Part shown: positions 43,819 through 63,225 of the stretch, in pieces
How positions within the stretch are numbered: the stretch's first letter is position 1
How the letters are laid out: each line of letters opens with the position of its first letter
Notes under the pieces: generated by a model
What the model saw: only the letters and a program-made list of their open reading frames with translations
What the model was told of the DNA's origin: nothing
Database searches by the model: none
Assembly (NCBI RefSeq): GCF_003967015.1
Contig: NZ_AP017560.1
Span: 496,001 to 560,000 of the forward strand
Origin: Pseudanabaena sp. ABRG5-3
GTDB taxonomy: Bacteria > Cyanobacteriota > Cyanobacteriia > Pseudanabaenales > Pseudanabaenaceae
Direction: 5' to 3'
DNA length: 64,000 nt
Made by a program: the position numbers and the translations under genes

Positions 43819-43832
43819 TGTTTTTATTAATC

Positions 43833-47040: not shown

Positions 47041-47240
47041 GATTTATATCCTTATAATAAATAAACTGCTAAACACTTAATGGGGATCATCTCATCTGTG
47101 CAACGATACATTTAGAATTAGAAGTCTCTAACAGTAGGCTTTTCGGGAAACTGCTTATCTATAAAAACAAAATACCAAAATTTAATATTTTAGAATCTTA
47201 GGGCTGATGATGTTATTTTGATTCTGAGTATTTCTACTAA

Positions 47241-47975
47241 TTATGTATGTAATTGTGATGCGTTAATATGACTTTCAAATTCCTTTAAGGCTTCTAGGCA
47301 AGTTAAACTAGGTTTACCACAATCTAACATAGCTTGACAAAGTTCTAAAAAGAAGGTTCTTGTTCCTCTTCCATCGAAACTATAATTAAAAGGAGAATTG
47401 CCTTTCTCAACAATCTCATCTCTTACCAAAGAATAATCCTCGTAAGTTCTTGTATTTAAGATGATATGCAAAGGATGAAAGTCAAACACATATAAAGAAT
47501 CACCTTGAATTGCCCTGTTGATAATATTTACATCGAAAGCGATATGGTCTAAATCTATCCAATTTTGATTCATACAAAAATCCATGTTGTCCATATAATA
47601 AATTGGCAATTCCCAAATCCCCCAAGGATGACGATAAGGACAAAGATTATTTTGTAGAAGTGGAGTTGTCATGCTTGTATAGACATAACCGTGTTTTTTT
47701 AAGTAGACTCCAAAAACATGAGAATACACACAAGAGTGTGATCGCATTCCTTGTGGCTTGATATTTAGTTTTTTCACTAATTCCTCGGTATCATATGACC
47801 AATCCCTAGTTTGCGAAAGATAAGGATGTGGCTCCAGTTCATGATTTCCCCAAGTTACACCTGAAAATGGTTTCCACAAAAAAAAAGTTGCCTGACCAAA
47901 TATCGGGAATCTTCTAAGAAATTTCTCCATGTCAGATTCAAGCATATAATCAGTGTCAAATGTCAAACAAATCAT
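47241..47975 (-). CDS. Polysaccharide-deacetylase-like protein, WbmS-like
   Basis: 244 residues with the NodB-like N-terminal acidic pair (CLTFDTDYMLE) and NHELEPHPYL in place of the usual HxxxH. GMRSHSCVYSHVFGVYLKKHGY and LYVFDFHPLHIILNT are conserved features that recall WbmS-type deacetylases from O-antigen loci. It may remove N-acetyl groups from a sugar. A 200-base, AT-rich, gene-free gap (47041-47240) separates it from the methyltransferase, which may hold a promoter. Confidence 0.78.
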   Translation of the reverse strand: MICLTFDTDYMLESDMEKFLRRFPIFGQATFFLWKPFSGVTWGNHELEPHPYLSQTRDWSYDTEELVKKLNIKPQGMRSHSCVYSHVFGVYLKKHGYVYTSMTTPLLQNNLCPYRHPWGIWELPIYYMDNMDFCMNQNWIDLDHIAFDVNIINRAIQGDSLYVFDFHPLHIILNTRTYEDYSLVRDEIVEKGNSPFNYSFDGRGTRTFFLELCQAMLDCGKPSLTCLEALKEFESHINASQLHT

Positions 47976-48016
47976 ATATTAAATCAACTTCAAACTATAT
48001 AATATTAAATTTATAT

Positions 48017-48937
48017 TTACGTATAATTAGAATATCTTCTCATTATTTTAGTAAGACTCAAAAACTTTTTATGATCTATAGCAAAATTTCCAGTAACACG
48101 AGTTAGAGAAGGAACATTCTGCACTACAACTGATCCAATAGTTATTTCGGCTCCATCACCTACTGTGATTTCATTAGAAATGCAAGAATTAGGACCTATC
48201 CAGACATCATCTCCTATAATAGAGCTTCCTGAAATTGTTGCAGATGCAGCAATAAGACATCTAGAACCTATCTTGACATTATGAGCTACATGAACAAGAT
48301 TGTCTAACTTTGTATCTTTACCAATCTCAGTAAAACCACCAAAAATAGCTTTAGAAATAGCACAGTTAGCTTGTATTTCTACTCTGTCACAAATTTTTAC
48401 GCCACCTGCGTGAGCAATAGACATAATTTCGTTTTTGATGCGTTTAAATTCAAATCCTTGAGAACCTATCGTTGAGCCTGAACGAATAATCACATTCTCT
48501 CCTATTATTACATTGTCTAAAATATTAACGTTGGCTTCTATTATACTGCCATCACCAATAACAACATTTTTACTGGCGACATAAGCTGTTGGATGTATAC
48601 TTACATTCTTAGAAATTCTAGACTCAAAATCTTGCCAATAAAAATCTGTTTCCAACGCTAAATAATTATGAATACTAAAAAAATCATATCTAGGGTTGTC
48701 TGAAATAGCAATTCCATAGATATTTGGAAGTTTTTCGGCTATTTCGCTATTTGTTAAAATACATGATATCTCAGGATTCCTCAAAGCTTTACTGATGAAC
48801 TTACTAGACTCCAAAAAAACTAGCATATTCTTTTCGCTATGAGAGATACTACCCAAAGAAGAAAAGGAAGAATTGCTCTTAATCAATACAGGAACTATAC
48901 GGATTAATGCATCTAAATTGATACTGTTAATACTCAT
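48017..48937 (-). CDS. LpxD-like acyltransferase (hexapeptide left-handed beta helix)
   Basis: 306 residues. The central part has hexapeptide repeats (VVIGDGSIIEANVNILDNVIIGENVIIRSGS) and the LpxD catalytic region NLVHVAHNVKIGSRCLIA with the active His. Length and N-terminal domain resemble LpxD, which adds an acyl chain to UDP-sugar, though the first ~90 residues differ from it. In this locus, N-acylation of an amino sugar is the likely role, not lipid A synthesis. Confidence 0.78.
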   Translation of the reverse strand: MSINSINLDALIRIVPVLIKSNSSFSSLGSISHSEKNMLVFLESSKFISKALRNPEISCILTNSEIAEKLPNIYGIAISDNPRYDFFSIHNYLALETDFYWQDFESRISKNVSIHPTAYVASKNVVIGDGSIIEANVNILDNVIIGENVIIRSGSTIGSQGFEFKRIKNEIMSIAHAGGVKICDRVEIQANCAISKAIFGGFTEIGKDTKLDNLVHVAHNVKIGSRCLIAASATISGSSIIGDDVWIGPNSCISNEITVGDGAEITIGSVVVQNVPSLTRVTGNFAIDHKKFLSLTKIMRRYSNYT

Positions 48938-48996
48938 ACATTAAACTATTTGTTTGGGCTGATTTGCCTATAATTATACTTTTTATCTCTATTATT

Positions 48997-50601
48997 TCAA
49001 GGTAGCAATATATTTTTGTAAGTGTTTTGAATCGTATTTATTATGACTGATGAACTGTGATACTTGAGATACCATGACTTACCTTGACTTTCAACTTCTG
49101 AGCGGTAAGATTTATCAGTATAAACTTTTTGAAGACTTTCGAATACGTTTTGTGGTGTTTCAGCATTAATAAATGGGGGCATCTCCTCAAAACACCATTC
49201 ATGAATAGAAAGATCTATATATATAAGCGTTATCTTATGAGACATTAATGCTTTTGGAGGTATGCCACCAAAACCGCCAAAGCAAAATTTATCTGCTACT
49301 ATATCACTACCTTCTATAAACTTCATCATATTTTGATGGTTTTGAGGCTTTATCCAAACAATAGAGCTTTCTATCCCAAGCTCTTTTATGAGGTTTTTAC
49401 TTTCATTTAGAGTAATTCCCCACTCTACAAAGATAGCTTTTGCCGACGGATTAACAGTTTGAACGAATTTAGCAAACCCTTTTATGAAAATATCATTACC
49501 TTTGTCCATACTGGGATTTCTTTGAGTTTCCCAATGTTGCCTTGGTGGATGAAATACTATAAAGTCACTTTTTAAAGTCTTGTGTATTTCCTTATAAAAG
49601 TTACTTTCCCCACTATTCAAGGTTACAGCTAAAGAAGATTCATTTATAGGATGAGGGACAAAATTATAGGCTGATAAATTTAGCTTTTTGGCAGCTACTA
49701 TATTATCAGCATTAGTTATCAAAACTTGATTGGCAAGCTTATATGTTAATGCACATAAACGACCTGTTGTTGAATTATTAAAAGGCAAGTCTCTAATAGT
49801 ACCATGCTCATATGCAACATAAGGTTTATTTGCAAGAAGTGGGAAAATACCATCAGTTGCATAGGCATGAACTAAGTCATAGTGAGTAAACAAGTTGATC
49901 CAAGAATTTATGACTGTACTGTACTGTACTAGCTCTTCATATTTAAGTTTGTCATGACGTTCAGGAAATTCTGTGTTGAAAATATCAACTAGTTGCTGAC
50001 ATCGTTCTTCAAAACTATATTTTCTTGTTTTTTCTTCTTGAGACTCTGACTTATAAATATTTTTCGATAAATGCAATTCAGCTATTAGTCTCATGGAAAT
50101 AGAAATAATTTTTGAGAATATATTTTTAATTCTTTGCTGAAAAGAAGAGATTTTTGAAAACACATCTATTGCTAACTTACCGAATTGTTTACTACTTTTT
50201 AAATGGCAAGTAAAAAAGTTTGCAATTCTTAGTAACATCCACCAAAAAGAACTTTGAAATTTCTTACCTTTTCTTTTTGAGATCAAATACAAAATACAAT
50301 ATTTTAGTTTGCCTTGGGCAAACCACCTTGGTCTTTTAAAGGATCCAGTATCTATTAATAGCCAGTTTGGGAAGAATTGATCCTTAATTTTTCTTGCATC
50401 AAAGTTTGCATCTTCCCATTCTGGGCATCCAGCTATGTGATAGTAATCATAACAAATTACATCACAATCAAACCCTACTTCATTTAGTAATTTAACGTTG
50501 TTGTATGCATTATTTGCAATATTTCCAATGTGAAGAATTCGTGGTGCCCGACCATACTTATTCTTAAATTCCTTAAGCCATATTATATTTTCTTCTAGCA
50601 T
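48997..50601 (-). CDS. GT-B glycosyltransferase-like protein, divergent
   Basis: 534 residues. C-terminal half: VFHPPRQHWETQRN, SSIVWIKPQNHQNMMKFIEGSDIVADKFCFGGFGGIPPKALMS. The motif D-K-x-x-x-G is a variant of D-Q-x-x-x-G in its three relatives. The middle has a helical linker rich in Lys/Glu (SQEEKTRKYSFEERCQQ). A glycosyltransferase is the best guess. Gap of 209 bases to the next gene includes only a small palindrome. Confidence 0.72.
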   Translation of the reverse strand: MLEENIIWLKEFKNKYGRAPRILHIGNIANNAYNNVKLLNEVGFDCDVICYDYYHIAGCPEWEDANFDARKIKDQFFPNWLLIDTGSFKRPRWFAQGKLKYCILYLISKRKGKKFQSSFWWMLLRIANFFTCHLKSSKQFGKLAIDVFSKISSFQQRIKNIFSKIISISMRLIAELHLSKNIYKSESQEEKTRKYSFEERCQQLVDIFNTEFPERHDKLKYEELVQYSTVINSWINLFTHYDLVHAYATDGIFPLLANKPYVAYEHGTIRDLPFNNSTTGRLCALTYKLANQVLITNADNIVAAKKLNLSAYNFVPHPINESSLAVTLNSGESNFYKEIHKTLKSDFIVFHPPRQHWETQRNPSMDKGNDIFIKGFAKFVQTVNPSAKAIFVEWGITLNESKNLIKELGIESSIVWIKPQNHQNMMKFIEGSDIVADKFCFGGFGGIPPKALMSHKITLIYIDLSIHEWCFEEMPPFINAETPQNVFESLQKVYTDKSYRSEVESQGKSWYLKYHSSSVIINTIQNTYKNILLP

Positions 50602-50715
50602 TTAGATAGATACCCTTTCAAAAAACTTTGTTTCCCTTAAATATTTACAAATAATATACATTATCTAAATTTAGACTATGTTTCAGGAATGATTCATGAA
50701 TCTATTTTGAGGTTG

Positions 50716-50743
50716 GCTAAGCTCAACATTAGTTGAGCTTAGC
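50716..50743. repeat. 12-bp hairpin after the DegT aminotransferase gene
   Basis: GCTAAGCTCAAC and GTTGAGCTTAGC pair perfectly, loop ATTA. It is downstream of the minus-strand stop at 50811 but is not followed by a T run on that strand. Possible terminator. Confidence 0.45.
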
Positions 50744-50810
50744 ATAACTTAAGTAAGACTTAATATATATGTTTTAGGTATTAAAAATACTTGTTGAGCC
50801 TTATTGTTTA

Positions 50811-51947
50811 CTAAGTGGATAGAGCTGCTTTTAAAATATTTACAACTTTCTGCTGATCTAGGTCAGTCATGCCTGGGAAAATTGGTAGAGTAATTGATAA
50901 ATCCTCTGATTTGGATGCGTAGGGATAAGATGTTGAGTTAATACCGTATTTGTTTTTGTAATAGCCCAAACGGTGAACAGCATGTGTTCCAGGACGACTT
51001 TGAATACCCTCTGTAGCTAAGGCTTCCATCAAAAGATTACGGCGATCAATCCCTCCTACCAGTAGGCACACAACATATGATTGATAGGAATGCCCACATT
51101 GAGAAGGCATTTGTGGAATTGTAAGTTCGGATACTGAAGATAACAATAAATCATATTGACGAGCGCAAGCAAGTCTATCTGCTAAAAGTTTGTCAAGTTT
51201 TGCCATTTGAGCGACTCCGATCGCAGCCTGAATGTCACTAAAACGCAGATTAAAACCTAAATGATCAAAGTTGCCCATATAGTAGGGCTTAGAAGTATCA
51301 ATATTAGGATTTGCTGTTGCGCCATGGTTACGGAGGATTTTAATACGTTCTGCTAGTTTTGGGTTATTGGTCGTAACCATGCCCCCCTCACCTGTAGTTA
51401 TCACTTTGCGTGGGTGAAATGAAAAACAGCCTATGTCTCCAATCCCTCCAACTGGTTTACCATCGTAATTTGTACCTGTAGCACAAGCCGCATCTTCTAC
51501 TACAGCAAGGTTATACTTTTTAGCTATCTCCATGATTTCCTGCATTTTTGCGGCTAAGCCAAATAAATGCACAACAACAATAGCCTTGGTCTTAGGTGTA
51601 ATTGCTGCTTCTAAAGCCGCAGGGTCAATATTAAATGTATCTGGTTCAATATCGACAAAAACAACTTTTGCCCCAACGTATTCTACGCAGTGGGCGGATG
51701 TAACCCATGTAAATGCAGGTACGATCACCTCATCATCAGGTTTTATCTCTAACGCGACCATCGCCATATGCAGCGCGGCTGTACAGGATGTAGTCGCAAA
51801 TGCATACTGCACATCGTGCCGTTGCTTAAAAAGGCTTTCAAACTGTTGAGTAAATTCACCCTGTGTAACCCATTTAGAATCTAGACACTGTTTTAAAAGT
51901 AGTAATTCTTGTTCGTCGAAAGATGGAGACGTAATGTTTATTTTCAT
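50811..51947 (-). CDS. DegT/DnrJ/EryC1/StrS sugar aminotransferase
   Basis: PLP-dependent transfer of an amino group to a keto sugar nucleotide. 378 residues. The PLP-lysine is in CFSFHPRKVITTGEGG, and VIVPAFTWVTSA and VVEDAACATG are conserved. The product would be an amino-deoxysugar for the glycan. It is next to the CysC gene, with a 47-base gap. Confidence 0.9.
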   Translation of the reverse strand: MKINITSPSFDEQELLLLKQCLDSKWVTQGEFTQQFESLFKQRHDVQYAFATTSCTAALHMAMVALEIKPDDEVIVPAFTWVTSAHCVEYVGAKVVFVDIEPDTFNIDPAALEAAITPKTKAIVVVHLFGLAAKMQEIMEIAKKYNLAVVEDAACATGTNYDGKPVGGIGDIGCFSFHPRKVITTGEGGMVTTNNPKLAERIKILRNHGATANPNIDTSKPYYMGNFDHLGFNLRFSDIQAAIGVAQMAKLDKLLADRLACARQYDLLLSSVSELTIPQMPSQCGHSYQSYVVCLLVGGIDRRNLLMEALATEGIQSRPGTHAVHRLGYYKNKYGINSTSYPYASKSEDLSITLPIFPGMTDLDQQKVVNILKAALST

Positions 51948-51994
51948 TCAGTGTGCTAAAAACTTCAGAGTTTTAATCTCTCTAGATTGTACCT

Positions 51995-52594
51995 TTAGTC
52001 GTTCACGTTTTGAAAGTCCCAAAACTTTTGCAGCACTTTTTGAACACTTTCATCAATGCTTTCTCGATCTGTCCAGCATTCAACATCAGGATTTAAGGGA
52101 GGCTCATATGGATCGGTCACCCCAGTAAAACTAGTTATTTCTCCTGCTCGTGCTTTCTTGTACAAACCCTTAACGTCCCTTTGCTCACAAGTATCAAGAG
52201 AAGCATTAATATAAACTTCCATAAAATTGCCGATCAACTGACGTACTTCTTGTCGAACTTCCAGATAGGGAGAAATAGCTGCCACTACTACAATTACATC
52301 ATGTTTAGTCAAAAGGTGAGAGACAAACCCGATTCTGCGGATATTTTCATCGCGATCAGCTTTGCTAAAGCCTAAACCTTTAGTTAACTTCGTCCGAACG
52401 ATATCTCCATCAAGAAACTCGACTTTATAGCCTTGCGTTGTCAATCTATTGACAACCTCACTCCCAATTGTAGTTTTGCCTGCACCACTTAAACCTGTAA
52501 GCCAAATCGTCATTCCTACTTGTTTCATTAGAATATTTTCCAATCTATCTCCATGCGAAACACCCCAAAATAATATATTAGGATGATGATACAT
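51995..52594 (-). CDS. cysC: Adenylylsulfate (APS) kinase
   Basis: Makes PAPS from APS and ATP. 199 residues with P-loop GLSGAGKTTI and the family motifs LDGDIVRTKL, NIRRIGFVSHLL and AISPYLEVRQEVR. The start is at ATG 52592-52594 (MYHHPNILFWG); an in-frame TTG seven codons before it is less likely. It sits directly beside a sulfotransferase, which needs PAPS. Since the cysH in this window has the APS-type cluster, this CysC may serve sulfation only. Confidence 0.93.
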   Translation of the reverse strand: MYHHPNILFWGVSHGDRLENILMKQVGMTIWLTGLSGAGKTTIGSEVVNRLTTQGYKVEFLDGDIVRTKLTKGLGFSKADRDENIRRIGFVSHLLTKHDVIVVVAAISPYLEVRQEVRQLIGNFMEVYINASLDTCEQRDVKGLYKKARAGEITSFTGVTDPYEPPLNPDVECWTDRESIDESVQKVLQKFWDFQNVND

Positions 52595-52632
52595 TCTGGA
52601 ATGTTTTTTATCCAATCGAATATTTTAATCTC

Positions 52633-53652
52633 CTAAAACTTTAACATTTGATCTAATGCTTGAGATAATTTCCATCTAACTTCTTTATTCAATGTATCAC
52701 TAGACATTTGACGAATTTTGGGAAGAGAAACAGGTATACCTACCTTTGGCAATGAGCATCCGAAAGACTCTAAAGAATCAACAAGCATATCAAGAGTAGT
52801 TTCAGGATCTTCAATCAGATCTTCATACTTAATTGTAAATTTTCTTTGCTCTGGAATTAATGCCCAAGACTTATCTATTGCTCTACGAATAGATAAGATC
52901 TGAGATGCAATTTGTACTTCAGGAGTTTGAAGGCAAAGCGATTCATAATTTTGTGGTCTTATTGACCACCATTCTGTAGTTGAACCAAATCTGTTTTGAC
53001 GAACATTCCAAAACGACTCAGCAACATCAAGCGTATTGCGTTGTAAATCTATGAAGAAGATATTACTGATATTCTGGAGTGGTAAAACAAAATAGCTGCC
53101 GAGAATACACTTGAAAATAACAGGTTTATCAAAAATATTTATAATAGAATCTAATTCCTGTTGTAACTTATCAATGTCAACATTAAGCAATTCCAAAGCG
53201 GAAGGCTCGTGAACATCTTTACAAATCCCTAGATGTCGAGTCCAGAAATAGCCAAATTCATGAGGTTCTTCAATTAAAGCTGTAGCACCATGGGTACTTT
53301 GATAATCTCGTAAGTTATGAAGTCTGTTCCCAATCAACATTTTCTGCAAAAATGCTCCTACTGCTGGAGTCTCATGAAATCTTGCCATCAGGTTAGACGG
53401 ATAAGCAATATCAAGCCTTGATGAGATAATTTGCATAAGAAGTGTCGAACCAGACCGAGGAGTCCCAAGAATTATCAATACAGGATGCGCTGAAGTCTTC
53501 CTATTTTCCAATTGTCTCTGAAGAGGTAGCAGAGAATTATTTATCAATTCAATCAAAGCTTCTTCTTCTTCATTTTTTAAGAACTGGGGCAGTCTTTTTT
53601 TAGCATCAAATGAAGAGCGTTGTATATAATTATTGGAAGAGTTGTCAGACAT
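52633..53652 (-). CDS. PAPS-dependent sulfotransferase
   Basis: 339 residues. The 5'-phosphosulfate-binding loop is ILGTPRSGSTLLMQII and the 3'-phosphate-binding stretch is IFFIDLQRNTLDVAES. It transfers sulfate to an acceptor, probably a sugar hydroxyl or amine in the glycan. It is adjacent to cysC (39-base gap), which supplies the donor. Acceptor cannot be inferred. Confidence 0.88.
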   Translation of the reverse strand: MSDNSSNNYIQRSSFDAKKRLPQFLKNEEEEALIELINNSLLPLQRQLENRKTSAHPVLIILGTPRSGSTLLMQIISSRLDIAYPSNLMARFHETPAVGAFLQKMLIGNRLHNLRDYQSTHGATALIEEPHEFGYFWTRHLGICKDVHEPSALELLNVDIDKLQQELDSIINIFDKPVIFKCILGSYFVLPLQNISNIFFIDLQRNTLDVAESFWNVRQNRFGSTTEWWSIRPQNYESLCLQTPEVQIASQILSIRRAIDKSWALIPEQRKFTIKYEDLIEDPETTLDMLVDSLESFGCSLPKVGIPVSLPKIRQMSSDTLNKEVRWKLSQALDQMLKF

Positions 53653-53672
53653 AAATAGTAGTTCACTTTTAG

Positions 53673-54752
53673 TTACTGATGTAGTGCAGAAAAAGGTAAA
53701 ACGTAGAAGTAAGGATATTCACGAAGTAAATCTTCTTTAGACAGATTTAAAATACTATTGTCTATTAGGTTAGTATAATAATTATATTTTAGATCGTGCG
53801 TTCCCCATCTTTTTTTAAATTGATAAACTCCAGTTTGAGATAACCATGTTCCTCCCCAATTCCAATACTTACATTTTCTTTTGGTTGCATCTTTCATTGC
53901 TGAATGAATCAAGAGGCTCATCGGTTGATCAATTCTAAATTCAGCCTTAGTAACTGGAGTATAATATTCGGCAGTTTGATTGTAGAAAAACACGAGAAGA
54001 GCAGCAACTATAATATCATTTTTATGAGCTGTATAAACTCGGTAATGCTTATCGTACTCAAAAGTTTTATATATTGATTGAAATATCTCCAATGGCTTAT
54101 GCATTCCTCCCACAGCCATAATATTCTCATGATGTATATCAAACAAAAACTGCATTACTTCTAAGGAACCAGAATGATCGATTTTTATTCCAGCCTTTTC
54201 CGCTTTTCTCACACAATTTCGGGTTTTTTGATGATAAAGCCCTTTAAGATGATCATCTAGATCTTCCTCTATCAAATTCCAGCTAGGAAGATAAACAATC
54301 TGACCAATACGTTCATCTTGAAAACTGAATTTTAGGTTTTCGGAGTAAAAATTTAGTTGTTCTTCCTGATCTAATGGACTAGATATTAAAGTATGTGCAA
54401 TAACAGATTCTGCATTAACAATTGAGTTAAACGCTTGTATCAATTCAATTCTGACTTTATCTAAACTAATAACTTGCTCAGAAATCAACAATCCACCATT
54501 GCTCCCATAAAAAGGCAATGAATTTGCAATATTACCAAATTGTGTGTTGTACTTAATAAAGAAAGGTAATACCCCAACTAATTGGCTATTTTCATATGCT
54601 AAAAGATAATAGTCTTTCGTATTATCTAGTATGCCCCTCAAAAAATTCCGATAAACTAGCGAAGAATAAATCAAAGTTTTGTCCATCGAATAGAGAAATG
54701 ACTCATAGATTTCCTCTTGCTCTGTTGATAAAAGCTGTATTTGGATTGCCAT
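53673..54752 (-). CDS. FemAB/BioF2-like GNAT-fold transferase
   Basis: 359 residues of the acetyltransferase-6 type: LKGLYHQKTRNCVRKAEKAGIKI, GGMHKPLEIFQSIYKTF and KYWNWGGTWLSQTGVYQFKKRWG. FemAB-like enzymes add amino acids from aminoacyl-tRNA, or acyl groups, to amino groups in cell wall sugars. The substrate is unknown. It stands 20 bases from the sulfotransferase gene in the operon. Confidence 0.8.
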   Translation of the reverse strand: MAIQIQLLSTEQEEIYESFLYSMDKTLIYSSLVYRNFLRGILDNTKDYYLLAYENSQLVGVLPFFIKYNTQFGNIANSLPFYGSNGGLLISEQVISLDKVRIELIQAFNSIVNAESVIAHTLISSPLDQEEQLNFYSENLKFSFQDERIGQIVYLPSWNLIEEDLDDHLKGLYHQKTRNCVRKAEKAGIKIDHSGSLEVMQFLFDIHHENIMAVGGMHKPLEIFQSIYKTFEYDKHYRVYTAHKNDIIVAALLVFFYNQTAEYYTPVTKAEFRIDQPMSLLIHSAMKDATKRKCKYWNWGGTWLSQTGVYQFKKRWGTHDLKYNYYTNLIDNSILNLSKEDLLREYPYFYVLPFSALHQ

Positions 54753-54790
54753 AAGATTTAATAACGATCAGAATATTAAGTAATAACGAT

Positions 54791-55828
54791 TCAAAAAGAT
54801 TGTTGACAAGCCTCTATAACAGATCTCATTTGACCATTATTGAGTGCTGGATATATTGGAATTGAGATTGTTTCTTCAAATAATCTTTCAGCGGAGGGAA
54901 ATTGGTTGCTGTCAGATTTATACATCCTATGTAACAAAACGTCAACGCCGCGTCTAACTTGAATTCCTTTTTGAGATAACTCTTGCTGAACCATCTCAAA
55001 ATCACGGCTAGATCTGACGGGAAACCGAAAAAAGATACTCTTGTTTCTTATTTCATAAGGTAGAAGAATATCCAAAGCAGCTAATTCCTCAAAATAATAT
55101 GCCGCAATTTCTCTTCGTCGTTGTAAAAAATCTTTGTAACGAAGTAGTTGATTTAGCCCTAATGATGCTTGCATATCAGACATAGGAGACATAAAACGGT
55201 GAAGAGTTGTCAGTTTTTCTCCTTGTCGAATTGCAAGGATTTTGGCAATAAGGTTTGAGTCTTTACAACCAACTACCCCTCCTTCCGCTGTGGTTAAGCA
55301 TTTGGTAGCTTGGAATGAAAAAACAGCTAAATCACCAAAAGTCCCTACTTTTTGGTGATTTAGCTCTGCTCCAAGAGACTGGCAGCAATCCTCAATAATT
55401 GGAATCTGTAAGTTTTTCAATTGCGCTACATCAACGGGTATGCCAAACACATGTACTGCAATAATTGCACCTGTATGCTTTGTGATTTTTGCAGTGACAG
55501 TTTCCGCTGTCATAACCCAATTCGGACCAATATCACATAAAACTGGTGTTGCACCTACTAATATTACTGCTTCTAGAACTTGAGGACAAACGTAAGTTGG
55601 AAGAATCACCTCATCTTTGAACCGAATCTCTAAAGCTAGAAGTGCTAAGACTAATGCTGCCGTTCCACTAGAAGTTGCCACGCAATAAGGAAGAGTAGTG
55701 TAAAGCGATATTTGTTCCTCAAACTCAGACACTTTAGAGCCTTGAGCAATCATTCCAGTTGATATAGTTACATTAACTGCTTCTAGATCTTTATCAATAA
55801 TCCATGGTTTTGAGTGTGGAATATTCAT
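54791..55828 (-). CDS. DegT/DnrJ/EryC1/StrS sugar aminotransferase, second copy
   Basis: 345 residues. PLP-lysine is in LAVFSFQATKCLTTAEGGVVG, with VILPTYVCPQVL and PIIEDCCQSLG conserved. The locus thus encodes two distinct aminotransferases of this family, which suggests two amino sugars or two steps. 38 bases separate it from the FemAB-like gene. The following gap of 176 bases (55829-56004) is AT-rich with no feature. Confidence 0.9.
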   Translation of the reverse strand: MNIPHSKPWIIDKDLEAVNVTISTGMIAQGSKVSEFEEQISLYTTLPYCVATSSGTAALVLALLALEIRFKDEVILPTYVCPQVLEAVILVGATPVLCDIGPNWVMTAETVTAKITKHTGAIIAVHVFGIPVDVAQLKNLQIPIIEDCCQSLGAELNHQKVGTFGDLAVFSFQATKCLTTAEGGVVGCKDSNLIAKILAIRQGEKLTTLHRFMSPMSDMQASLGLNQLLRYKDFLQRRREIAAYYFEELAALDILLPYEIRNKSIFFRFPVRSSRDFEMVQQELSQKGIQVRRGVDVLLHRMYKSDSNQFPSAERLFEETISIPIYPALNNGQMRSVIEACQQSF

Positions 55829-56004
55829 GTAGGAATGGTTGTTTTGAGTGTAAAAATTCTTGCTTCGAACCGAAATGCAAACAGTTTTTTATTTTTTGAT
55901 TTTTTTTATTTTTTGATTAATGATATTTTGGAATCAAGTTAATCTTACTGATTCATAACTGGCATCACTTTTCTTAGGACTCATATGTGTTGATAAGCTA
56001 TTTC

Positions 56005-57630
56005 TCATGGATCGAAATCTCTATACAAAGGGTTAATCAAATCTTTAGGTAGAGGAACTTGATCGGCTGCAAGCCGCAACAATCCTAACAGTAAAGGCAT
56101 GGTTTTCTCTTCGCCATGATTTCTTAATAACCATGCTCTTACATCTTTACCAATCTGAACACGTAGAACTGGATTATCTACTAGCCTAAGCAAAGCCGCA
56201 AATACCTCATGGGGCTGACTGACATTAATCATTGGTGCAACATCTCCAGCATAGAGAGGAGTATATTGTTCTTCTCTTAACTTGATTAAGATTGGCTTCC
56301 CGATAGATGCTGCTTCTAGACCTGTTGCTCCGTAATAACCATAGACGAATTGATCTAGCACAATATCACAAGAACGGTAGTAATCAATTAAACGCTTTTT
56401 TCCAACAGGTGGTAGCAAAATAAATTGATTTTTCATGTCTAAATCTGCAATCTTTTTTTGAAAATCTGGAAGACTATTACCCCATGCCAAAAAAATAAAG
56501 CGCAGTTCTGGGCGCATTTTTGCTGCATTCACTAAAGCTTGAAAAAGTTCATCACTCTGCCCTTTAACTTTTGTATCCAGTCTTGAAGTTGCCAGCACAA
56601 AGATCCCTTCTCCATAAGTTGTTTCCCATGTTTTACGAGCTTGTCCCTCCCCTGGTGAGTAAATGGAGGCATCCATCGGATAAGGCAAATAAATGCCATT
56701 GGTCAACCCCAAACGACGACAATGCCCAATAGCGTGGGGATTACTGATCATCAGAAATCTAGCCGCATTAAATGAGAGACTCATCAGCTTTCCTAAATCA
56801 TCAGGTTTACCGCAATCATACTGAAGGTCTCCGCCAACGGAGAAAGCACAATAGGGTTTTCCGCTGGCATAAGCAGGTAATGGATTACTCGCCGCATAGA
56901 TGACATCATAATCAGACAGAGCTTTGGCAGTAGCAAAGTATGGGTAAAAGCCATCATAAGCCAGTAAGATTTCATGTCGAAGAGTTCTAGATTTAGACAT
57001 CAAGTGGAGCAACGGGATTCGAGATCCCAAACAAAAATCTCTAAATGCACTATACAACTCAGATCCTTCCATCGGCACAGAAAAACTAGGCACTTGAACT
57101 TGAATATCTGGATATGTTTTAAGGAAGTTATCCCCATCCATCAAATCAGGGAATTCTCCATTAAACTCCTCCCACTCAGGCAAGTTTACGGCGCTAGTGT
57201 CCATCGGATTAGGAAACAAACCAACTGATGCGCCATACTTCTGTGCGAGCTTTGCCCATTTGTATGTGTTTTGCGCCATATTTACGGCAAAAGCACATTT
57301 AAGAGGCTCAGGATGAGTATCTAAATAGTCAAGGGTAAATCTCCAAACATCGGTGGAATAAGTCCGAAACTTACTGATATTCTCATGCGTGAGATAGGGG
57401 TTATCCCATGGATGATGATCAATGTTAGGCGTAAAATTTTTAGAGTTTTGGAAAGGCTCAAAAAATCCCTTAAATCTAAGAAGATTAGTTTCTAACTCTA
57501 TTCTTTTAGTTTCCAATTCTCGTCTTTCAGCCTCTATAGTTTTTTGTTTTTGCTCTAGCTCAATCCAGTATTTTAGTTTGTTTCCAATAAATGGAAGTGA
57601 TGGAGCTAATTTTTTGATAAAAATTTTCAT
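56005..57630 (-). CDS. GT-B glycosyltransferase with N-terminal coiled coil
   Basis: 541 residues. Residues 23-53 form a charged coiled coil (LEQKQKTIEAERRELETKR). The C-terminal domain has FVLATSRLDTKVKGQSDELFQA, then CDIVLDQFVYGYYGATGLEAASIGKPIL. This has the same D-Q-x-x-x-G-x-x-G signature as the two GTs downstream. It is likely a sugar transferase acting on the lipid-linked chain. Sits 23 bases from the deacetylase fusion gene. Confidence 0.82.
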   Translation of the reverse strand: MKIFIKKLAPSLPFIGNKLKYWIELEQKQKTIEAERRELETKRIELETNLLRFKGFFEPFQNSKNFTPNIDHHPWDNPYLTHENISKFRTYSTDVWRFTLDYLDTHPEPLKCAFAVNMAQNTYKWAKLAQKYGASVGLFPNPMDTSAVNLPEWEEFNGEFPDLMDGDNFLKTYPDIQVQVPSFSVPMEGSELYSAFRDFCLGSRIPLLHLMSKSRTLRHEILLAYDGFYPYFATAKALSDYDVIYAASNPLPAYASGKPYCAFSVGGDLQYDCGKPDDLGKLMSLSFNAARFLMISNPHAIGHCRRLGLTNGIYLPYPMDASIYSPGEGQARKTWETTYGEGIFVLATSRLDTKVKGQSDELFQALVNAAKMRPELRFIFLAWGNSLPDFQKKIADLDMKNQFILLPPVGKKRLIDYYRSCDIVLDQFVYGYYGATGLEAASIGKPILIKLREEQYTPLYAGDVAPMINVSQPHEVFAALLRLVDNPVLRVQIGKDVRAWLLRNHGEEKTMPLLLGLLRLAADQVPLPKDLINPLYRDFDP

Positions 57631-57653
57631 TCTTACAATTTCCCGTTGAGGCT

Positions 57654-60278
57654 TTATTTAGTGAGATTGTGTATAGAGGTATCTAAATGAATCTGCTTAG
57701 ACCATGAAGGTAATATTTTCGTTTGCCACCCATCCTTTGTAAGATAGCGAATTGCCAAATTTTGGACTAATTGATTTGACTTCAGTAAAAATCCTTGATC
57801 TGTAGATTCAAGATGTATACTATCCAACATATATAACCAGTCAAGATAGCTATCTAAACCAAGAGCAATCCAACCAGCGCGTTGAGAAAGCAATATAACT
57901 GCTTTGTGTAGATCGCCAGTACTATCTACATTTTGAGGATGTAAATTGAATACTAAGACACCCGACACAGAAGATTCGATTTGGCGTGCCAATTGATTTA
58001 TTCTCTTTGCCGCCTGTTTTTCTGTCCAGTTAAGCGCAAAAATTATACCGTCTCCAAATGCTGTGAGGAGACTATAGTGATTCGACCATCTTCCATCAGG
58101 GCTTTTTATTCTCATTGGCAAAAGAGAACCATTCATTACCGTCCCATCTGCTTTGGAGTAGTTAACACTTAAGCCAATATCGTTTTCTTCCCATGCTTTT
58201 AGATGTCCGATATAGCCTTTGTGAAGATATCCATGATTACGCAGAGTCCGTATTGGCTTGCCTGATAACTGGCGAATAAAATTTGCTTGTTCAGTACATA
58301 GCTGATCATATTGTTCAGGATGCTCTAAAGCATCAGGATGCAAGCCAATTTCTACATTACTTGGCATTTTGGTTAGAGTCTCTTGGGTATGTCTTGTCTG
58401 CGGAACCAATAAATAAGTGATTGGGCAATTACCGATCATCTTTAACTGTTGATCATATTTCTCTAAAAAAGCTTGATCGTCATCTCCAGTGAGAATAACA
58501 GTACCCTTAGCGCCATTGGGCAAGATTTCAATGAGGGGGCAACCACTCAGTTTAGAGAAGGTTTCGGCCAAGAAAAAACCTAGATAATCAGCCCAAGGAT
58601 AAGTAGAATATTTGGGATGTATCTGATCTTCAAACAAGTAGTTAGCTCGTTCATGAGCAAACCCAAAACCGCCTTTTGTCGCAGTCTCAATAACTTTGCT
58701 AGGATCTCCTTGTCGATGCCGAATAATCTCTTCTTCTACATTTAAACCAATCAAAAGAATTTTTTTGTTTTCGTGCTTTAACCATGCGATCACAGCCTGT
58801 CCTTTCTCATTTACCCAAACAGGCTCTATGTTCTCTCCCACAAAAGTAATATGCGGTAATAGAGCATGATAGATAGGCTTAATAGACTTAAACGGATTCC
58901 AAGCTTTTTTTACTTGAGATAGATAGAATATCTCTTTCTCTAAATTCAATGAAATTTGCACCCCAAAATCTGACAAATCTGACTTCTCAGACACAAAAAC
59001 TACATCTGTTTGAATACCAAGTAGAAAATCATTAGTACTGATTTGAAAAGGAAGAGTGATCAGCCCATAGGAACGAAGAATTATTTTAATACTTGTTTCG
59101 TTCTGATTGCCAAGAAATATGGTTTTCTCCGAATGTTTTTTTTCTGTTTTATTTAATTCGTTTATCACTGTCTCTTTAGGTTTACACAACAATTCGATTT
59201 CTTTTATGCCATTTTGTATATATTTTTCTGGTTTACAGAAATAACTACCCTCAATAATTGTAGTGTTACGTCCACCAAACTTTTTTTTAAATCGAGAAAC
59301 TTTTTCTGCGGGACTGTCTTTAGGGATTTCTGGAAAATAAGGGCCAAGCCTATAAGTGTGATGACCTTCTGAATTTGCCCATTTAATTACTGACCAGTGC
59401 ATGAAATCATTGACACGCAAAGAAAGAAAAGAAGGATCGGATACCCCAGCGATGAAGCTGATAGAACCTTTATCTATCAGTAGCAATAATGCCCCAATTC
59501 GCTGACCTTGATATAATGCGAAAAGCATTACACATTGTCCTTTTGGATAAAATTGATCAAAGATGGTTTTGAAATAATCAATTGAAGGTAATACTTCTCC
59601 AGTACGTTCAGACGATAGTTGGGCGATTTTGTAGTAGGAGTCTATGTGACTAGGAGCATCAGCAAACTCGATTTCTAGTCCATTTTTGATCGCTTTTTTA
59701 ACTGCTCTTTGACAAGAATCCTGTAAGCCTTGAAATAATTCTTCTGTACTAGCATTTTTTAGATGAACTATCTGATCTGCACTGCAACTTCTCATCCCTG
59801 GCACAGGGATGAAACCAGTTTCCGTAAAATGCAACCCCAAATAAAAACCATCTTCATACACCCAAAAGGGGATTTCTTCTCGTTGAGCAGACAGATTTCT
59901 TGGTGCTAAATTATGAGAATTTAATTGAATGCGATCGACATCAATTTGAGAAGCTAATCGTTTAATATGATCCATGGCTAGTTTACGAGCTAACTTAACC
60001 TGCTTTGGAGAGAGATTATTTAAAAGTGCGAGTCCCGTATGCCTATGAATACCACTATCAAGCAACCGTTCAAACCCCAAATCATGGAAATATAATGGCT
60101 GGATTCCGATCAGTTCGCCACAATCAGAAAGAATCGCAAATGAGTAATTAGATTGAATAAAGAAATTCTCTTCAATCTTTATCCACTCATACCTGTGAAA
60201 TAACCAAGCGTCATCAGATAGATCGCAAATATTATTCCATTCAACTTGTGAGACTTCAATGTAGCTTACGATCTTCAT
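57654..60278 (-). CDS. Fusion of FemAB-like transferase and NodB-like deacetylase
   Basis: 874 residues, three parts. The N-terminal ~360 is a FemAB/GNAT-like fold (GLQDSCQRAVKKAIKNGLEIEF; YRLGPYFPEIPKDSP; VSRFKKKFGG). The middle (about 395-560) resembles a small class-I amidotransferase-like domain (FVGENIEPVWVNEKGQ then KKILLIGLNVEEEIIRHRQGD). The C-terminal part from ~590 begins VILTGDDDQAF and includes IEIGLHPDALEHPE-like EIGLHPDALEHP and RTLRNHGYLHKGY, a NodB-type deacetylase. Such a protein could deacetylate and then aminoacylate or acylate the exposed amine. That sequence of events is inference. Confidence 0.75.
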   Translation of the reverse strand: MKIVSYIEVSQVEWNNICDLSDDAWLFHRYEWIKIEENFFIQSNYSFAILSDCGELIGIQPLYFHDLGFERLLDSGIHRHTGLALLNNLSPKQVKLARKLAMDHIKRLASQIDVDRIQLNSHNLAPRNLSAQREEIPFWVYEDGFYLGLHFTETGFIPVPGMRSCSADQIVHLKNASTEELFQGLQDSCQRAVKKAIKNGLEIEFADAPSHIDSYYKIAQLSSERTGEVLPSIDYFKTIFDQFYPKGQCVMLFALYQGQRIGALLLLIDKGSISFIAGVSDPSFLSLRVNDFMHWSVIKWANSEGHHTYRLGPYFPEIPKDSPAEKVSRFKKKFGGRNTTIIEGSYFCKPEKYIQNGIKEIELLCKPKETVINELNKTEKKHSEKTIFLGNQNETSIKIILRSYGLITLPFQISTNDFLLGIQTDVVFVSEKSDLSDFGVQISLNLEKEIFYLSQVKKAWNPFKSIKPIYHALLPHITFVGENIEPVWVNEKGQAVIAWLKHENKKILLIGLNVEEEIIRHRQGDPSKVIETATKGGFGFAHERANYLFEDQIHPKYSTYPWADYLGFFLAETFSKLSGCPLIEILPNGAKGTVILTGDDDQAFLEKYDQQLKMIGNCPITYLLVPQTRHTQETLTKMPSNVEIGLHPDALEHPEQYDQLCTEQANFIRQLSGKPIRTLRNHGYLHKGYIGHLKAWEENDIGLSVNYSKADGTVMNGSLLPMRIKSPDGRWSNHYSLLTAFGDGIIFALNWTEKQAAKRINQLARQIESSVSGVLVFNLHPQNVDSTGDLHKAVILLSQRAGWIALGLDSYLDWLYMLDSIHLESTDQGFLLKSNQLVQNLAIRYLTKDGWQTKILPSWSKQIHLDTSIHNLTK

Positions 60279-60298
60279 AAATAATTAGGTAAAAAGGC

Positions 60299-61099
60299 TT
60301 AGATTGATTTAGTGTAAATTACATTGAAACGATAACCAAAATAGGGATTTAAAGGATGAATATCTAGTATTTCTGTTGATGCACCTAACTTATTGCCAAA
60401 ATCCTGAAAATCCGATTTCTGAAAAGTGTAGCAAATAATCTGAGGCTCAATTTTTTTGATTCTCTTGTAGTACCAAAGTTGTGATTTTGTTAAAAAATTC
60501 TCCTGTTTCTGTCGAGGGGCAAGCGTTCCAAATTGACTGTCTAATTTCTTTTGTAGATCTTGATGAATCTTTGCTTGTATATCTGTATCTCCCACTGATT
60601 CAGGAACAGAACCAATCATTATTTGTCCATTGGGCTTAAGCACTCGCCACATTTGCCTAAGCATATTAGATGCATAGTCTACACTTGGAAAATTATTAAA
60701 CACGTCATAACAAATTACGCGATCAAAAGAATCTGAAGCAAAGAGCAACTTTTCACCATCAGCATACTGAAAAGTTGCATTTGTCAATTGAAGACGCTTT
60801 GCTACGGAGATTGCAACTTCAGAAATATCGACTCCCGTGTATTTATCAACTTTCTCAGCCAGTCCATTAGCAAGAAACCCAGCAGCACAACCTACTTCTA
60901 ATAAAGATTGACTAGGTGAAAGTTGAAGCTGAGTTGTTATACAAGAAATAAGATCATCATATATAAGAGGGTTAGTCCACAAACGAGGCTCTTTTGCACT
61001 TACATAACATAAATCTTCTAATGTTGGTATGCCTTCGATAGTTGAAGCTCTTTGAGAAAAGAATAAGCTCGCAGCTTTCTTAAAGTTAATAGTAATCAT
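60299..61099 (-). CDS. SAM-dependent methyltransferase
   Basis: 266 residues. Motif I is LLEVGCAAGFLANGLAEKVDKYTGVDIS. It is of the methyltransferase-11 type with YADGEKLLFASDSFDRVICYDVFNNF. It probably methylates a sugar or a chain end; in ABC-exported glycans methylation can cap the chain. Gap to the fusion gene is 20 bases. Confidence 0.85.
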   Translation of the reverse strand: MITINFKKAASLFFSQRASTIEGIPTLEDLCYVSAKEPRLWTNPLIYDDLISCITTQLQLSPSQSLLEVGCAAGFLANGLAEKVDKYTGVDISEVAISVAKRLQLTNATFQYADGEKLLFASDSFDRVICYDVFNNFPSVDYASNMLRQMWRVLKPNGQIMIGSVPESVGDTDIQAKIHQDLQKKLDSQFGTLAPRQKQENFLTKSQLWYYKRIKKIEPQIICYTFQKSDFQDFGNKLGASTEILDIHPLNPYFGYRFNVIYTKSI

Positions 61100-61108
61100 G
61101 AATATTAT

Positions 61109-62392
61109 TTATTTACAATAGGTATAATTAAGCTCAGCAAATTTGATGTCTGGTTCGTACGTATACATATGCCCAGCTTTATTTTTTTGCTTCACGGAGA
61201 ATCGTACAACTTTTTCTACATAAAATAATATGTCTTCTTTAATAACAATAGGATTTTTCTTAGTGATTAAAGAGCAGCTAATAAAGTAGTCTCCCTGCCC
61301 TAATTTCAAGTTGGGAATTGTGAATTCAAACTCACCACTCCCAGACAATGGATTGCCATTGTTTAAGAAAATATCATCATACCAAGTTGCGTAACCTGTA
61401 ATACCATTACTAACTGTACTATCAACTCTAAACGTTGCGGCGATTTTGCTTTCAGAGCAATCTCCTTCCCATTTAAAACGAATCTTTAGTGTTTCTCCAT
61501 TCTCAAACAAGTAAGTTTCTAATCCAAAATCATTAAGTAAATCTACTCTCGTAATCCTTAAATTACTATTTTCAAGTACATATTTGCCAGTTTCTAGGAC
61601 TAACAAGTTTGTATTGTTAGACTCACACTCTATACGATTATTATCTTCAACCAGCTTCCATACACTGTATTCATATGCTTTTGTAACGTTCTGAGCATCT
61701 CCGATCGCTTGAATTTTCGCCTTGTCCAGCCATATAGCTTGATTACATAACTCAGCAATTAGCCCTGCTGAATGGCTGACAAAGAAAACCGTAGCACCAC
61801 TTTCACAAATATCACGAATTTTCTGCATACATTTTCTGACAAAGTATGCGTCACCAGCAGCTAGAGCCTCATCTACGATAAAAATATCTGGCTCAATGCT
61901 TATTGCTGTTGAAAAGGTTAAGCGTGCTTGCATTCCACTAGAGTATGTTTTAAAAGGCTGATCAATAACATTACTCAGCTCGCTAAATTCAATTATCGAA
62001 TCAATCCTTTTATCAATATCAACGTCAGTCATCCCCAAACATATTAAGCCCATACGAATGTTTTCACGCCCTGTATAATCTGGCTGAAAGCCTGTACCAA
62101 GCTCAAGAATTGCCGACACCTTACCATTGATCTCAATTTCACCAGAGGTCTTGTCTAGAGTGCCTGCCAAAATCTTAAGAATCGTGCTTTTCCCTGCTCC
62201 ATTTGGACCAATAATACCAACAACTTCCCCTCTCTTTATTTCAAATGAGATATTCTTCAAAGCCCAAAATTCTTGATGTCGCTGCTTTCCAGTTATAAGC
62301 TCTAATAACATGTCAGAGGGCTTAGAATAAACTTTGTACATCTTTGAAAGATTAGTCACCTTAATGGCAACTTCTGATGATGCATTCGTCAT
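61109..62392 (-). CDS. wzt: ABC exporter ATPase of the Wzt type with C-terminal domain
   Basis: 427 residues. Walker [10 protein letters not shown], signature [12 protein letters not shown], Walker [15 protein letters not shown] and the H-loop FFVSHSAG. The last ~190 residues, with beta strands such as [17 protein letters not shown] and [14 protein letters not shown], correspond to the carbohydrate-binding domain of Wzt in O-antigen exporters that recognises the chain end. It pairs with the permease at 62389 (start and stop overlap by four bases). Confidence 0.93.
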
Positions 62393-63225
62393 AGTACATT
62401 TCCAAACATGACTTTTAAACGATTAAATAGTCTATAGCCCAGCGCAAAAACAAGGTGGCTGATTACAATATATACGACCCATGACCATGGATGCACAAAC
62501 CTACCAAAATAGAGAGCATCTTGATAGCACCAAGTCATGTAACTAAATGGATTAAAATACAAAAACACTCTAAATAGTTCAGGAACCTGTTCGGGAAGAT
62601 AAAAAATTGGCATGATGTAAATCCCCACAACAGTAAATACTTGCACAATATCTTTGATGTCGCGGAAATAAGTACCGATCGCAGCCAAAATATAAGACAC
62701 ACCTGCCATGCCAATCATTTGCACAAATACTAGCAAGGGCAAAAGTGCATAGGTAATAGGTAAGGTGGTATGCGTTGCCAAGACATATACAATCAAAATC
62801 GCAAAAAATATCCCTTGGGTAATCATCGATGCCAATACACTCTTTATTGGCAAAATCTCAATCGGGAAAACGACTTGTTTGACTAGGCTGGCATTACTTG
62901 TAATTACTGTGCTTGCTTTAGACATGCTCTCTTGCACAGCCATCCAAGGTATTAATCCTGAAAGTAAATAGGTTGTGTAATCAAGTGGCATTTCTCTTGT
63001 ACCGCCGATTTTGATTTTGAACACAATGACGAAAACAAAAATGTAAACGCCAATTAAAACTAGTGGATGTATTACTGCCCAAAATAATCCAAAAAATTGC
63101 CCCTGATAGCGATCAGTAATTTCTCGCTTTGCCATCTCCCATGTCAAAGTCTTATAAGTAGTCAGAAGCCTAAAAACTTCCCGAAATGGTTGGAGATTTC
63201 CTGTAAATAGCGATCGCATAATCAT
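62389..63225 (-). CDS. wzm: ABC exporter permease of the Wzm type
   Basis: 278 residues with six membrane helices, of the ABC-2 permease family. Conserved [22 protein letters not shown] near the N-terminus, and [30 protein letters not shown]. It works with Wzt to move the lipid-linked glycan across the inner membrane. Its end overlaps the wzt start, and its start overlaps the asnB stop by four bases. Confidence 0.93.

What the first reader, a model, noticed from the sequence alone, without database searches (positions are those of the whole stretch)
57654..60278. Three-part fusion: FemAB-like transferase, amidotransferase-like middle, NodB-like deacetylase
Deacetylation exposes an amine, and FemAB-like enzymes can acylate amines; having both in one chain suggests exchange of an acetyl for another group on the same sugar. 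The deacetylase uses EIGLHP in place of the usual HxxxH, as does the separate deacetylase at 47241 (ELEPHP).
Basis: partly seen in the sequence, partly recalled or inferred. Interest (0 to 1): 0.6.

Follow-up and report, generated by a model that had tools for sequence, protein, structure and literature searches.

The report
Fused sugar deacetylase and acyl transferase
In one cyanobacterial sugar-coat gene cluster, an enzyme part that probably strips acetyl groups from amino sugars is joined in one protein to a part of the kind that attaches amino acids or other acyl groups to amines, which suggests a one-protein group swap but does not prove it.

Summary
The 874-aa ORF at 57654-60278 (minus strand) is real and uninterrupted. 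Its N-terminal third is FemAB-type (PF02388/PF13480 over cut-off; the second GNAT domain matches FemX and the Sba18 transferase in fold). Its C-terminal half is a deacetylase of the WbmS branch of the NodB/CE4 superfamily. In the syntenic cluster of Anabaena sp. 4-3 the C-terminal half is a complete stand-alone 470-aa protein (61% identity), so the FemAB part was probably added. The full fusion was found in 1 of 26 genus genomes and in no other of 292 sampled phylum genomes. EIGLHP is not a loss: 8 of 8 WbmS-like proteins examined, and the crystal sequence 3HFT, lack the second His of HxxxH but carry a His two residues after the motif-3 Arg, where 14 of 15 HxxxH controls have Pro; it may complete the metal site. 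Deacetylate-then-reacylate is the likeliest function, already proposed in print for the separate Caulobacter proteins HfsH and HfsK. Activity, same-sugar action, donor and substrate are untested.

The parts
57654..60278 (-). Fusion ORF, 874 aa: FemAB-type transferase / unassigned region / WbmS-like deacetylase / short C-terminal tail
59229..60278 (-). FemAB-type domain, residues about 1-350
   Evidence: PF02388 and PF13480 over cut-off; Foldseek FemX 6snr E 1.2e-11
59340..59780 (-). Second GNAT domain, residues 167-313, the better-modelled part
   Evidence: 10-residue block means of pLDDT 61-94 for residues 171-310; VIA Z 17.2 to FemX 6snr (145 aligned, 2.6 A), 16.7 to Sba18 9wqy (140 aligned, 2.8 A)
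59286..59291 (-). F330-K331, aligned with the Phe-Lys of FemX-type transferases
   Evidence: K331 invariant in 7 FemAB-like proteins; FK aligned in 6snr and 9wqy; FemX catalytic Lys305 and DhpH-C Phe328/Lys329 in PMC12945691. Lies outside the good part of the model
59079..59228 (-). Linker, residues about 351-400; the Anabaena protein begins in this register
   Evidence: lowest GC segment (0.30 for residues 351-410); A1 alignment
58524..59078 (-).
   Evidence: no Pfam/NCBIfam/PHROG match; no conserved Cys; present in the Anabaena protein; model mostly below pLDDT 50
57879..58511 (-). WbmS-like deacetylase domain, residues about 590-800
   Evidence: weak fold support
58476..58484 (-). Motif 1, D599-x-D601 (predicted base and metal ligand)
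   Evidence: invariant in A4 and A5
58335..58352 (-). Motif 2, EIGLHP, H647 (predicted metal ligand); no second His
   Evidence: E, H, P invariant in A4; ELGVHP in 3HFT; the distant L029 has HI for HP
58233..58241 (-). Motif 3, R680-N-H682; H682 is the predicted third metal ligand
   Evidence: R-x-H in 8 of 8 WbmS-like proteins and in 3HFT
57936..57941 (-). Motif 5, H780-P781 (predicted catalytic acid)
   Evidence: invariant in A4 and A5
57657..57878 (-). C-terminal tail, residues 801-874, partly beta in the weak model; kept in Anabaena
47241..47975 (-). Separate 244-aa WbmS-like deacetylase of the same cluster
   Evidence: PF22537 59.3 bits; not seen in the Anabaena stretch L008
53673..54752 (-). 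Separate 359-aa FemAB-like gene, kept in Anabaena; 16% identical to the fused FemAB domain
42736..63225 (-). Glycan gene cluster: epimerase, glycosyltransferases, methyltransferases, two DegT aminotransferases, LpxD-like acyltransferase, APS kinase, sulfotransferase, FemAB, fusion, Wzt-like and Wzm-like ABC exporter; asparagine synthase from 63222
   Evidence: genes 42736-43818 and 44711-45916 have no Pfam match at E 1e-5

Best explanation
The protein is a cytosolic two-activity enzyme of glycan assembly in an ABC-export (Wzm/Wzt-like) polysaccharide cluster. The WbmS-like domain removes an N-acetyl (or similar N-acyl) group from an amino sugar by the metal-dependent CE4-type mechanism: D599 as base, a metal held by D601, H647 and probably H682, and H780 as acid. 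The FemAB-type domain then forms a new amide on an amine of the same glycan, most likely the amine just freed, using an aminoacyl-tRNA or another activated acyl donor. The region before the deacetylase and the tail belong to the deacetylase unit. Shown here: the open fusion, the family relations of both ends, the conserved residues, the stand-alone deacetylase in the syntenic cluster. Inferred: metal binding, activity of either domain, cytosolic location, same-sugar action, donor and substrate.
For: FemAB families over cut-off. Fold of residues 167-313 matches FemX (Z 17.2) and Sba18 solved with streptothrisamine (Z 16.7); the 13 best rows are FemX/FemA, Sba18/Sbb17 or MprF/A-PGS enzymes, which use aminoacyl-tRNA (recalled; for FemX and Orf11 also PMC12945691 passages). 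WbmS relation by ortholog and profile; motif residues kept in all six sequences of A4. No signal peptide by eye and no clear membrane span (best 19-residue hydropathy 1.77, inside the GNAT core; Wzm control 2.77), next to Wzm/Wzt-like genes. [quoted passage not shown] Gly-tRNA-dependent Orf11 converts streptothrisamine to glycylthricin (PMC12945691). Context of five other WbmS-like loci: formyltransferase genes (PF00551/PF02911) directly beside it in 2 of 5 (L016, L029), a FemAB gene (PF02388 31.7 bits) under 1 kb away in 1 of 5 (viral contig L028), neither in 2 of 5 (L015, L017; these loci are only about 3.5 kb long). The window cluster carries a second DegT aminotransferase and an LpxD-like acyltransferase not seen in the Anabaena stretch.
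Against: The Anabaena cluster uses the same deacetylase with no FemAB part. Both clusters have a separate FemAB gene that could serve the freed amine. FemAB (PF13480) and ordinary deacetylase (PF01522) genes are not generally neighbours: 1 of 68 FemAB hits in 59 class genomes lies within 10 kb of a PF01522 hit (read by eye), about what chance gives; PF01522 does not report the WbmS-like genes of the window. The fusion is a single occurrence, so no conservation supports it. The fusion's own deacetylase domain is under the Pfam cut-off. Models too weak for active-site geometry. I found no assay of WbmS (the ten wbm-locus papers listed were not opened).
Confidence: 0.5

Rival explanations
1. Both domains are active in the same glycan pathway but on different residues or steps; the fusion only couples expression and location.
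For: The deacetylase stands alone in the syntenic Anabaena cluster. The window cluster has two DegT aminotransferases, two deacetylases, two FemAB units and an LpxD-like acyltransferase, so several amino sugars and acylations are likely.
Against: Deacetylation makes exactly the acceptor group that FemAB-type enzymes use, and the fusion joins these two enzymes rather than other pairs of the cluster.
Confidence: 0.3
2. The fused FemAB domain has lost activity or acts only as a glycan-binding or docking module, and the protein is functionally a WbmS-type deacetylase.
For: No close relative of the FemAB domain: highest identity outside this protein 31%, over part of the domain, among 292 phylum genomes. 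First GNAT domain poorly modelled.
Against: Pfam scores well over cut-off; F330-K331 kept; reading frame intact over about 350 codons with composition like the rest.
Confidence: 0.15
3. Accidental recent read-through of two neighbouring genes, with no functional coupling.
For: Found once only: 1 of 26 genus genomes, no other of 292 phylum genomes, none in the genome-contig scans (narrow patterns). Low-GC linker.
Against: Nothing broken is seen in either part; in the Anabaena cluster the gene upstream of the deacetylase is a methyltransferase, not a FemAB gene.
Confidence: 0.05

Closest known systems
WbmS (O-antigen biosynthesis, PDB 3HFT; Pfam PF22537; Bordetella as source is recalled)
   Same: Deacetylase domain: D-x-D, E-x-G-x-H-P, R-x-H and HP motifs in register; glycan biosynthesis
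   Different: The crystal chain has 257 residues, with no FemAB part; the fusion's domain is 20-21% identical to the four other WbmS-like proteins aligned with it and 70% to Anabaena's
Anabaena sp. 4-3 470-aa deacetylase (NZ_LUHJ01000047.1; L003/L014)
   Same: 61% identical over residues 422-870 of the fusion, same place in a syntenic cluster
   Different: No FemAB domain
FemABX transferases (FemX, FemA) and Sba18/Sbb17/Orf11-type aminoacyl transferases
   Same: PF02388, second GNAT domain, F-K motif; Sba18 was solved with streptothrisamine
   Different: Stand-alone enzymes acting on peptidoglycan precursors or small antibiotics; identity 16-22% in the structural alignments with FemX, FemA and Sba18/Sbb17
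HfsH + HfsK of the Caulobacter holdfast
   Same: A deacetylase and a FemX-like N-acyltransferase proposed to act in one pathway, HfsK perhaps on amines exposed by HfsH (PMC5362036 passages)
   Different: Two separate proteins; whether HfsH is of the HxxxH or the WbmS branch was not tested here
PelA (CE21) and PelADA de-N-acetylases
   Same: The order alpha/beta domain, CE domain, beta-rich domain resembles the Anabaena protein and the C-terminal 500 residues here (PMC12022489 section 4 part 1 and PMC13254593 section 4); PelA 9cgy Z 7.5, 150 aligned, over the CE part
   Different: PelA/PelADA have HxxxH and act in the periplasm or outside; homology of the middle part is not shown

Membership tests
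WbmS-like deacetylase (PF22537) | Pfam gathering score (27 bits) | tested here: not met
   Fusion domain 13.1 bits. Its 61% ortholog meets it with 30.5, the neighbour gene 47241-47975 with 59.3. So I call the domain WbmS-related through its ortholog, not a formal member by score
WbmS-like deacetylase (PF22537) | Family motifs D-x-D, E-x-x-x-H-P, R-x-H, HP | tested here: met
   Invariant in six sequences; aligned in register to 3HFT, E 1.6e-23 for the profile of A5. The distant L029 has HI for HP
NodB / CE4 with canonical metal motif | H-x-x-x-H in motif 2 | tested here: not met
   HPDAL. Of 20 PF01522 controls that I picked among the high scorers, 15 had H[ST]xxH, 2 lacked it by this pattern and 3 had no TFDDG frame and were not scored
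NodB / CE4 superfamily (fold) | CE4-type barrel | tested here: inconclusive
   Model poor (mean pLDDT 42); Foldseek best is CE4 5lfz E 0.014; the top VIA rows are mostly CE4-type, best Z 7.5, under the 8 that the tool's note asks for
FemABX (PF02388) / Acetyltransf_6 (PF13480) | Pfam gathering scores | tested here: met
   41.9 over 24 and 48.6 over 22 bits
FemABX (PF02388) / Acetyltransf_6 (PF13480) | Two GNAT domains | tested here: inconclusive
   Second domain clear, first domain low confidence
FemABX (PF02388) / Acetyltransf_6 (PF13480) | Phe-Lys at the transfer site | tested here: met
   Sequence alignment only; role of the Lys from PMC12945691 passages
FemABX (PF02388) / Acetyltransf_6 (PF13480) | Aminoacyl-tRNA donor | not testable with these tools
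   needs an assay
XrtA/PEP-CTERM FemAB (TIGR03019) | Curated score 260.35 bits | tested here: not met
   47.1 bits
   The only Cys of the region sits in SGCPLIE and is Tyr in the ortholog
PelA CE21 | Metal triad D-H-H with HxxxH | tested here: not met
   EIGLHPDAL against the PelA description in PMC12022489

The most novel reading that the evidence does not exclude
A self-contained acyl-exchange enzyme that deacetylates an amino sugar of a surface polysaccharide and re-acylates the same nitrogen with an amino acid from aminoacyl-tRNA, so that a polysaccharide is decorated directly from the tRNA pool. Coupled to it, a branch of the CE4 superfamily in which the third metal ligand has moved from motif 2 (second His of HxxxH) to motif 3 (R-x-H).
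Probability: 0.25. Interest if true: 0.65.

Novelty: new variant of a known kind. Interest (0 to 1): 0.42.

Why it matters
What FemAB-like proteins in polysaccharide clusters do is unsettled: the HfsK paper says its exact role remains unclear (PMC5362036). A natural fusion with a deacetylase points to the acceptor, the amine the deacetylase frees, and offers one predicted soluble protein on which the deacetylate-and-reacylate idea can be tested. The R-x-H observation would also explain how the WbmS branch can lack HxxxH and still be a metal enzyme, which can be checked in an already solved structure.

Tried and rejected
Rejected: that EIGLHP means a lost metal site. 8 of 8 WbmS-like proteins at hand have R-x-H in motif 3, as does 3HFT. 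Controls: 20 PF01522 hits picked by me among the high scorers; 15 showed H[ST]xxH, and 14 of those 15 have R-x-P as the first motif-3 candidate, none R-x-H (one had no candidate; L050 has an RPH further on, after its RPP); 2 lacked HxxxH by my pattern and 3 had no TFDDG frame and were dropped.

Rejected: amidotransferase activity of the middle.

Rejected as support: general neighbourhood of FemAB and deacetylase genes in the class. 1 of 68 PF13480 hits lies within 10 kb of a PF01522 hit on the same contig (G298:C189, L039), a second at about 20 kb in G313 (both tables read by eye). My rough chance expectation of 0.5-0.7 pairs was not computed by a script. Two of the 68 are the fusion and its neighbour in the window, whose WbmS-like deacetylases PF01522 does not report. 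Fragmented assemblies lower such counts.

Led nowhere: scans of genome contigs and viral contigs with the whole protein; a plasmid search that found only distant FemAB proteins, 5 records; AlphaFold models with 5 and 4 sequences were poor, so metal-site and acceptor-site geometry could not be checked. 3HFT is not among the fold matches listed; that says nothing about the fold.

Literature: WbmS with deacetylase gave 1 unrelated listing; FemAB with polysaccharide deacetylase and exopolysaccharide gave 3 papers, of which I read passages of PMC5362036 only and saw the other two as listings; wbm locus gave 10 listings, none opened; PEP-CTERM with FemAB and exosortase gave none; FemAB with deacetylase and cyanobacteria gave 1 listing. 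No title or abstract start shown told of such a fusion. That FemAB and deacetylase genes sit together in PEP-CTERM loci is recalled and is not used as evidence.

Full report
Observation. One uninterrupted ORF of 874 codons lies at 57654-60278 on the minus strand, on a 4.8 Mb contig of a 5.66 Mb genome in 8 contigs. The ORF sits in an AT-rich stretch (GC 0.33-0.39 from 42 kb on, against 0.39-0.46 before) that holds a glycan gene cluster: epimerase, glycosyltransferases, methyltransferases, two DegT aminotransferases, LpxD-like acyltransferase, APS kinase, sulfotransferase, a separate FemAB gene, a separate WbmS-like deacetylase and a Wzt/Wzm-like exporter, then an asparagine synthase.

N-terminal part. 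Residues 1-372 score over the Pfam cut-offs for Acetyltransf_6 and FemAB. In the PDB the nearest sequences are a Lipid II:glycine glycyltransferase (6snr, E 1.5e-6) and the aminoacyl-tRNA-dependent peptide synthases 9wqy and 9wqw (E 4.3e-4 and 1.3e-3). The model is weak overall (mean pLDDT 51), but residues 171-310 are better (block means 61-94). Residues 167-313 match FemX (Z 17.2, 145 aligned, 2.6 A) and Sba18 (Z 16.7, 140 aligned, 2.8 A); 9wqy is Sba18 with streptothrisamine bound. The F-K pair at 330-331 aligns with F-K in both, and K331 is invariant in seven FemAB-like proteins. The review PMC12945691 (passages) names Lys305 of FemX as catalytic, and Lys329 with Phe328 in DhpH-C. The same review tells that Orf11, a relative of FemX, uses Gly-tRNA to turn streptothrisamine into glycylthricin (passages); the primary paper it cites has 'amino sugar intermediate' in its title and was not held. 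No close relative of this domain was found: highest identity 31%, over part, among 292 phylum genomes; it is 16% identical to the cluster's other FemAB gene.

C-terminal part. Anabaena sp. 4-3 has a complete 470-aa protein, 61% identical to residues 422-870, without any FemAB part. The clusters are syntenic around it. Shared order: Wzm, Wzt, methyltransferase, deacetylase, glycosyltransferase, FemAB, sulfotransferase, DegT, glycosyltransferase, methyltransferase, glycosyltransferase. The window has in addition an APS kinase, a second DegT, an LpxD-like gene and the separate WbmS-like deacetylase (genes of 120 aa or more in the 20 kb read). The Anabaena protein scores over the PF22537 cut-off (30.5 against 27); the fusion's own domain does not (13.1). 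With five sequences the profile finds 3HFT, the WbmS crystal sequence, at E 1.6e-23, motifs in register. Invariant in six aligned sequences: both Asp of motif 1, Glu, His and Pro of motif 2, Arg and His of motif 3, an Asp in the motif 4 region, His and Pro of motif 5.

The HP motif. Ordinary CE4-type enzymes bind metal with an Asp and the two His of HxxxH (PMC12022489 and PMC13254593, passages). All 8 WbmS-like proteins at hand lack the second His, and all 8 have R-x-H in motif 3 (L029 has HI for HP); 3HFT has ELGVHP and VRSHS. Of 20 PF01522 controls, picked among the high scorers, 15 showed HxxxH, and 14 of these have R-x-P there, none R-x-H as first candidate (one without candidate, 2 without HxxxH by my pattern, 3 not scored). 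I infer that the motif-3 His replaces the missing ligand. This rests on sequence only; the model is too weak to check distances.

Middle and tail. The region between about 401 and 585 has no family match, and its only Cys is Tyr in the ortholog. PelA and PelADA carry an alpha/beta domain before and a beta-rich domain after their deacetylase, and the PelA alpha/beta domain resembles ThuA-like proteins and a region of PhzE (PMC12022489 section 4 part 1, PMC13254593 section 4). The same order is plausible here, but homology is not shown.

Rarity. The fusion is in 1 of 26 genus genomes (10 others match the FemAB part only, weakly) and no other of 292 phylum genomes. The deacetylase unit is in 2 of 388 class genomes. 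PF22537 is in 5 of 292 phylum genomes. Two scans of genome contigs found only Anabaena, but these use narrow peptide patterns.

Context for mechanism. Five other WbmS-like loci were read: L016 and L029 have formyltransferase genes (PF00551 and PF02911 over cut-off) directly beside it, viral contig L028 has a FemAB gene under 1 kb before it with an epimerase between, L015 and L017 have neither within their 3.5 kb. These fit deacetylation followed by new N-acylation in 3 of 5. Against this, FemAB genes and ordinary PF01522 deacetylases are not neighbours in general (1 of 68 within 10 kb, by eye). No signal peptide is seen at the N-terminus (by eye) and no clear membrane span (best 19-residue mean 1.77, in the GNAT core; Wzm 2.77), which fits work in the cytosol before ABC export; most CE4 deacetylases work outside (recalled).

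Conclusion. The likeliest reading is a bifunctional enzyme that frees an amine on an amino sugar and re-acylates it (0.5). Action on different residues of the same glycan is the main rival (0.3). The idea itself is in print for the separate HfsH and HfsK (PMC5362036, passages). What I add is the fusion, the stand-alone ortholog that suggests which half was added, and the R-x-H observation. My searches for a published FemAB-deacetylase fusion showed none in titles or abstract starts, in an open-licence library only.

Noticed in passing
L028:6-2600: A viral contig carries a FemAB-like gene, an epimerase and a WbmS-like deacetylase in a row (Pfam confirmed), followed by genes that look phage-structural by eye.
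   Followed up: partly
L016:404-3098 and L029:4944-6673: WbmS-like deacetylase genes directly beside formyltransferase genes, suggesting acetyl-to-formyl exchange on amino sugars.
   Followed up: partly
51995-53652: APS kinase and sulfotransferase side by side in the glycan cluster, so the product may be sulfated; the Anabaena stretch L008 has the sulfotransferase but I saw no APS kinase there.
   Followed up: no
42000-64000: The glycan cluster is poorer in GC than the first 42 kb of the window, which may mean horizontal gain.
   Followed up: no
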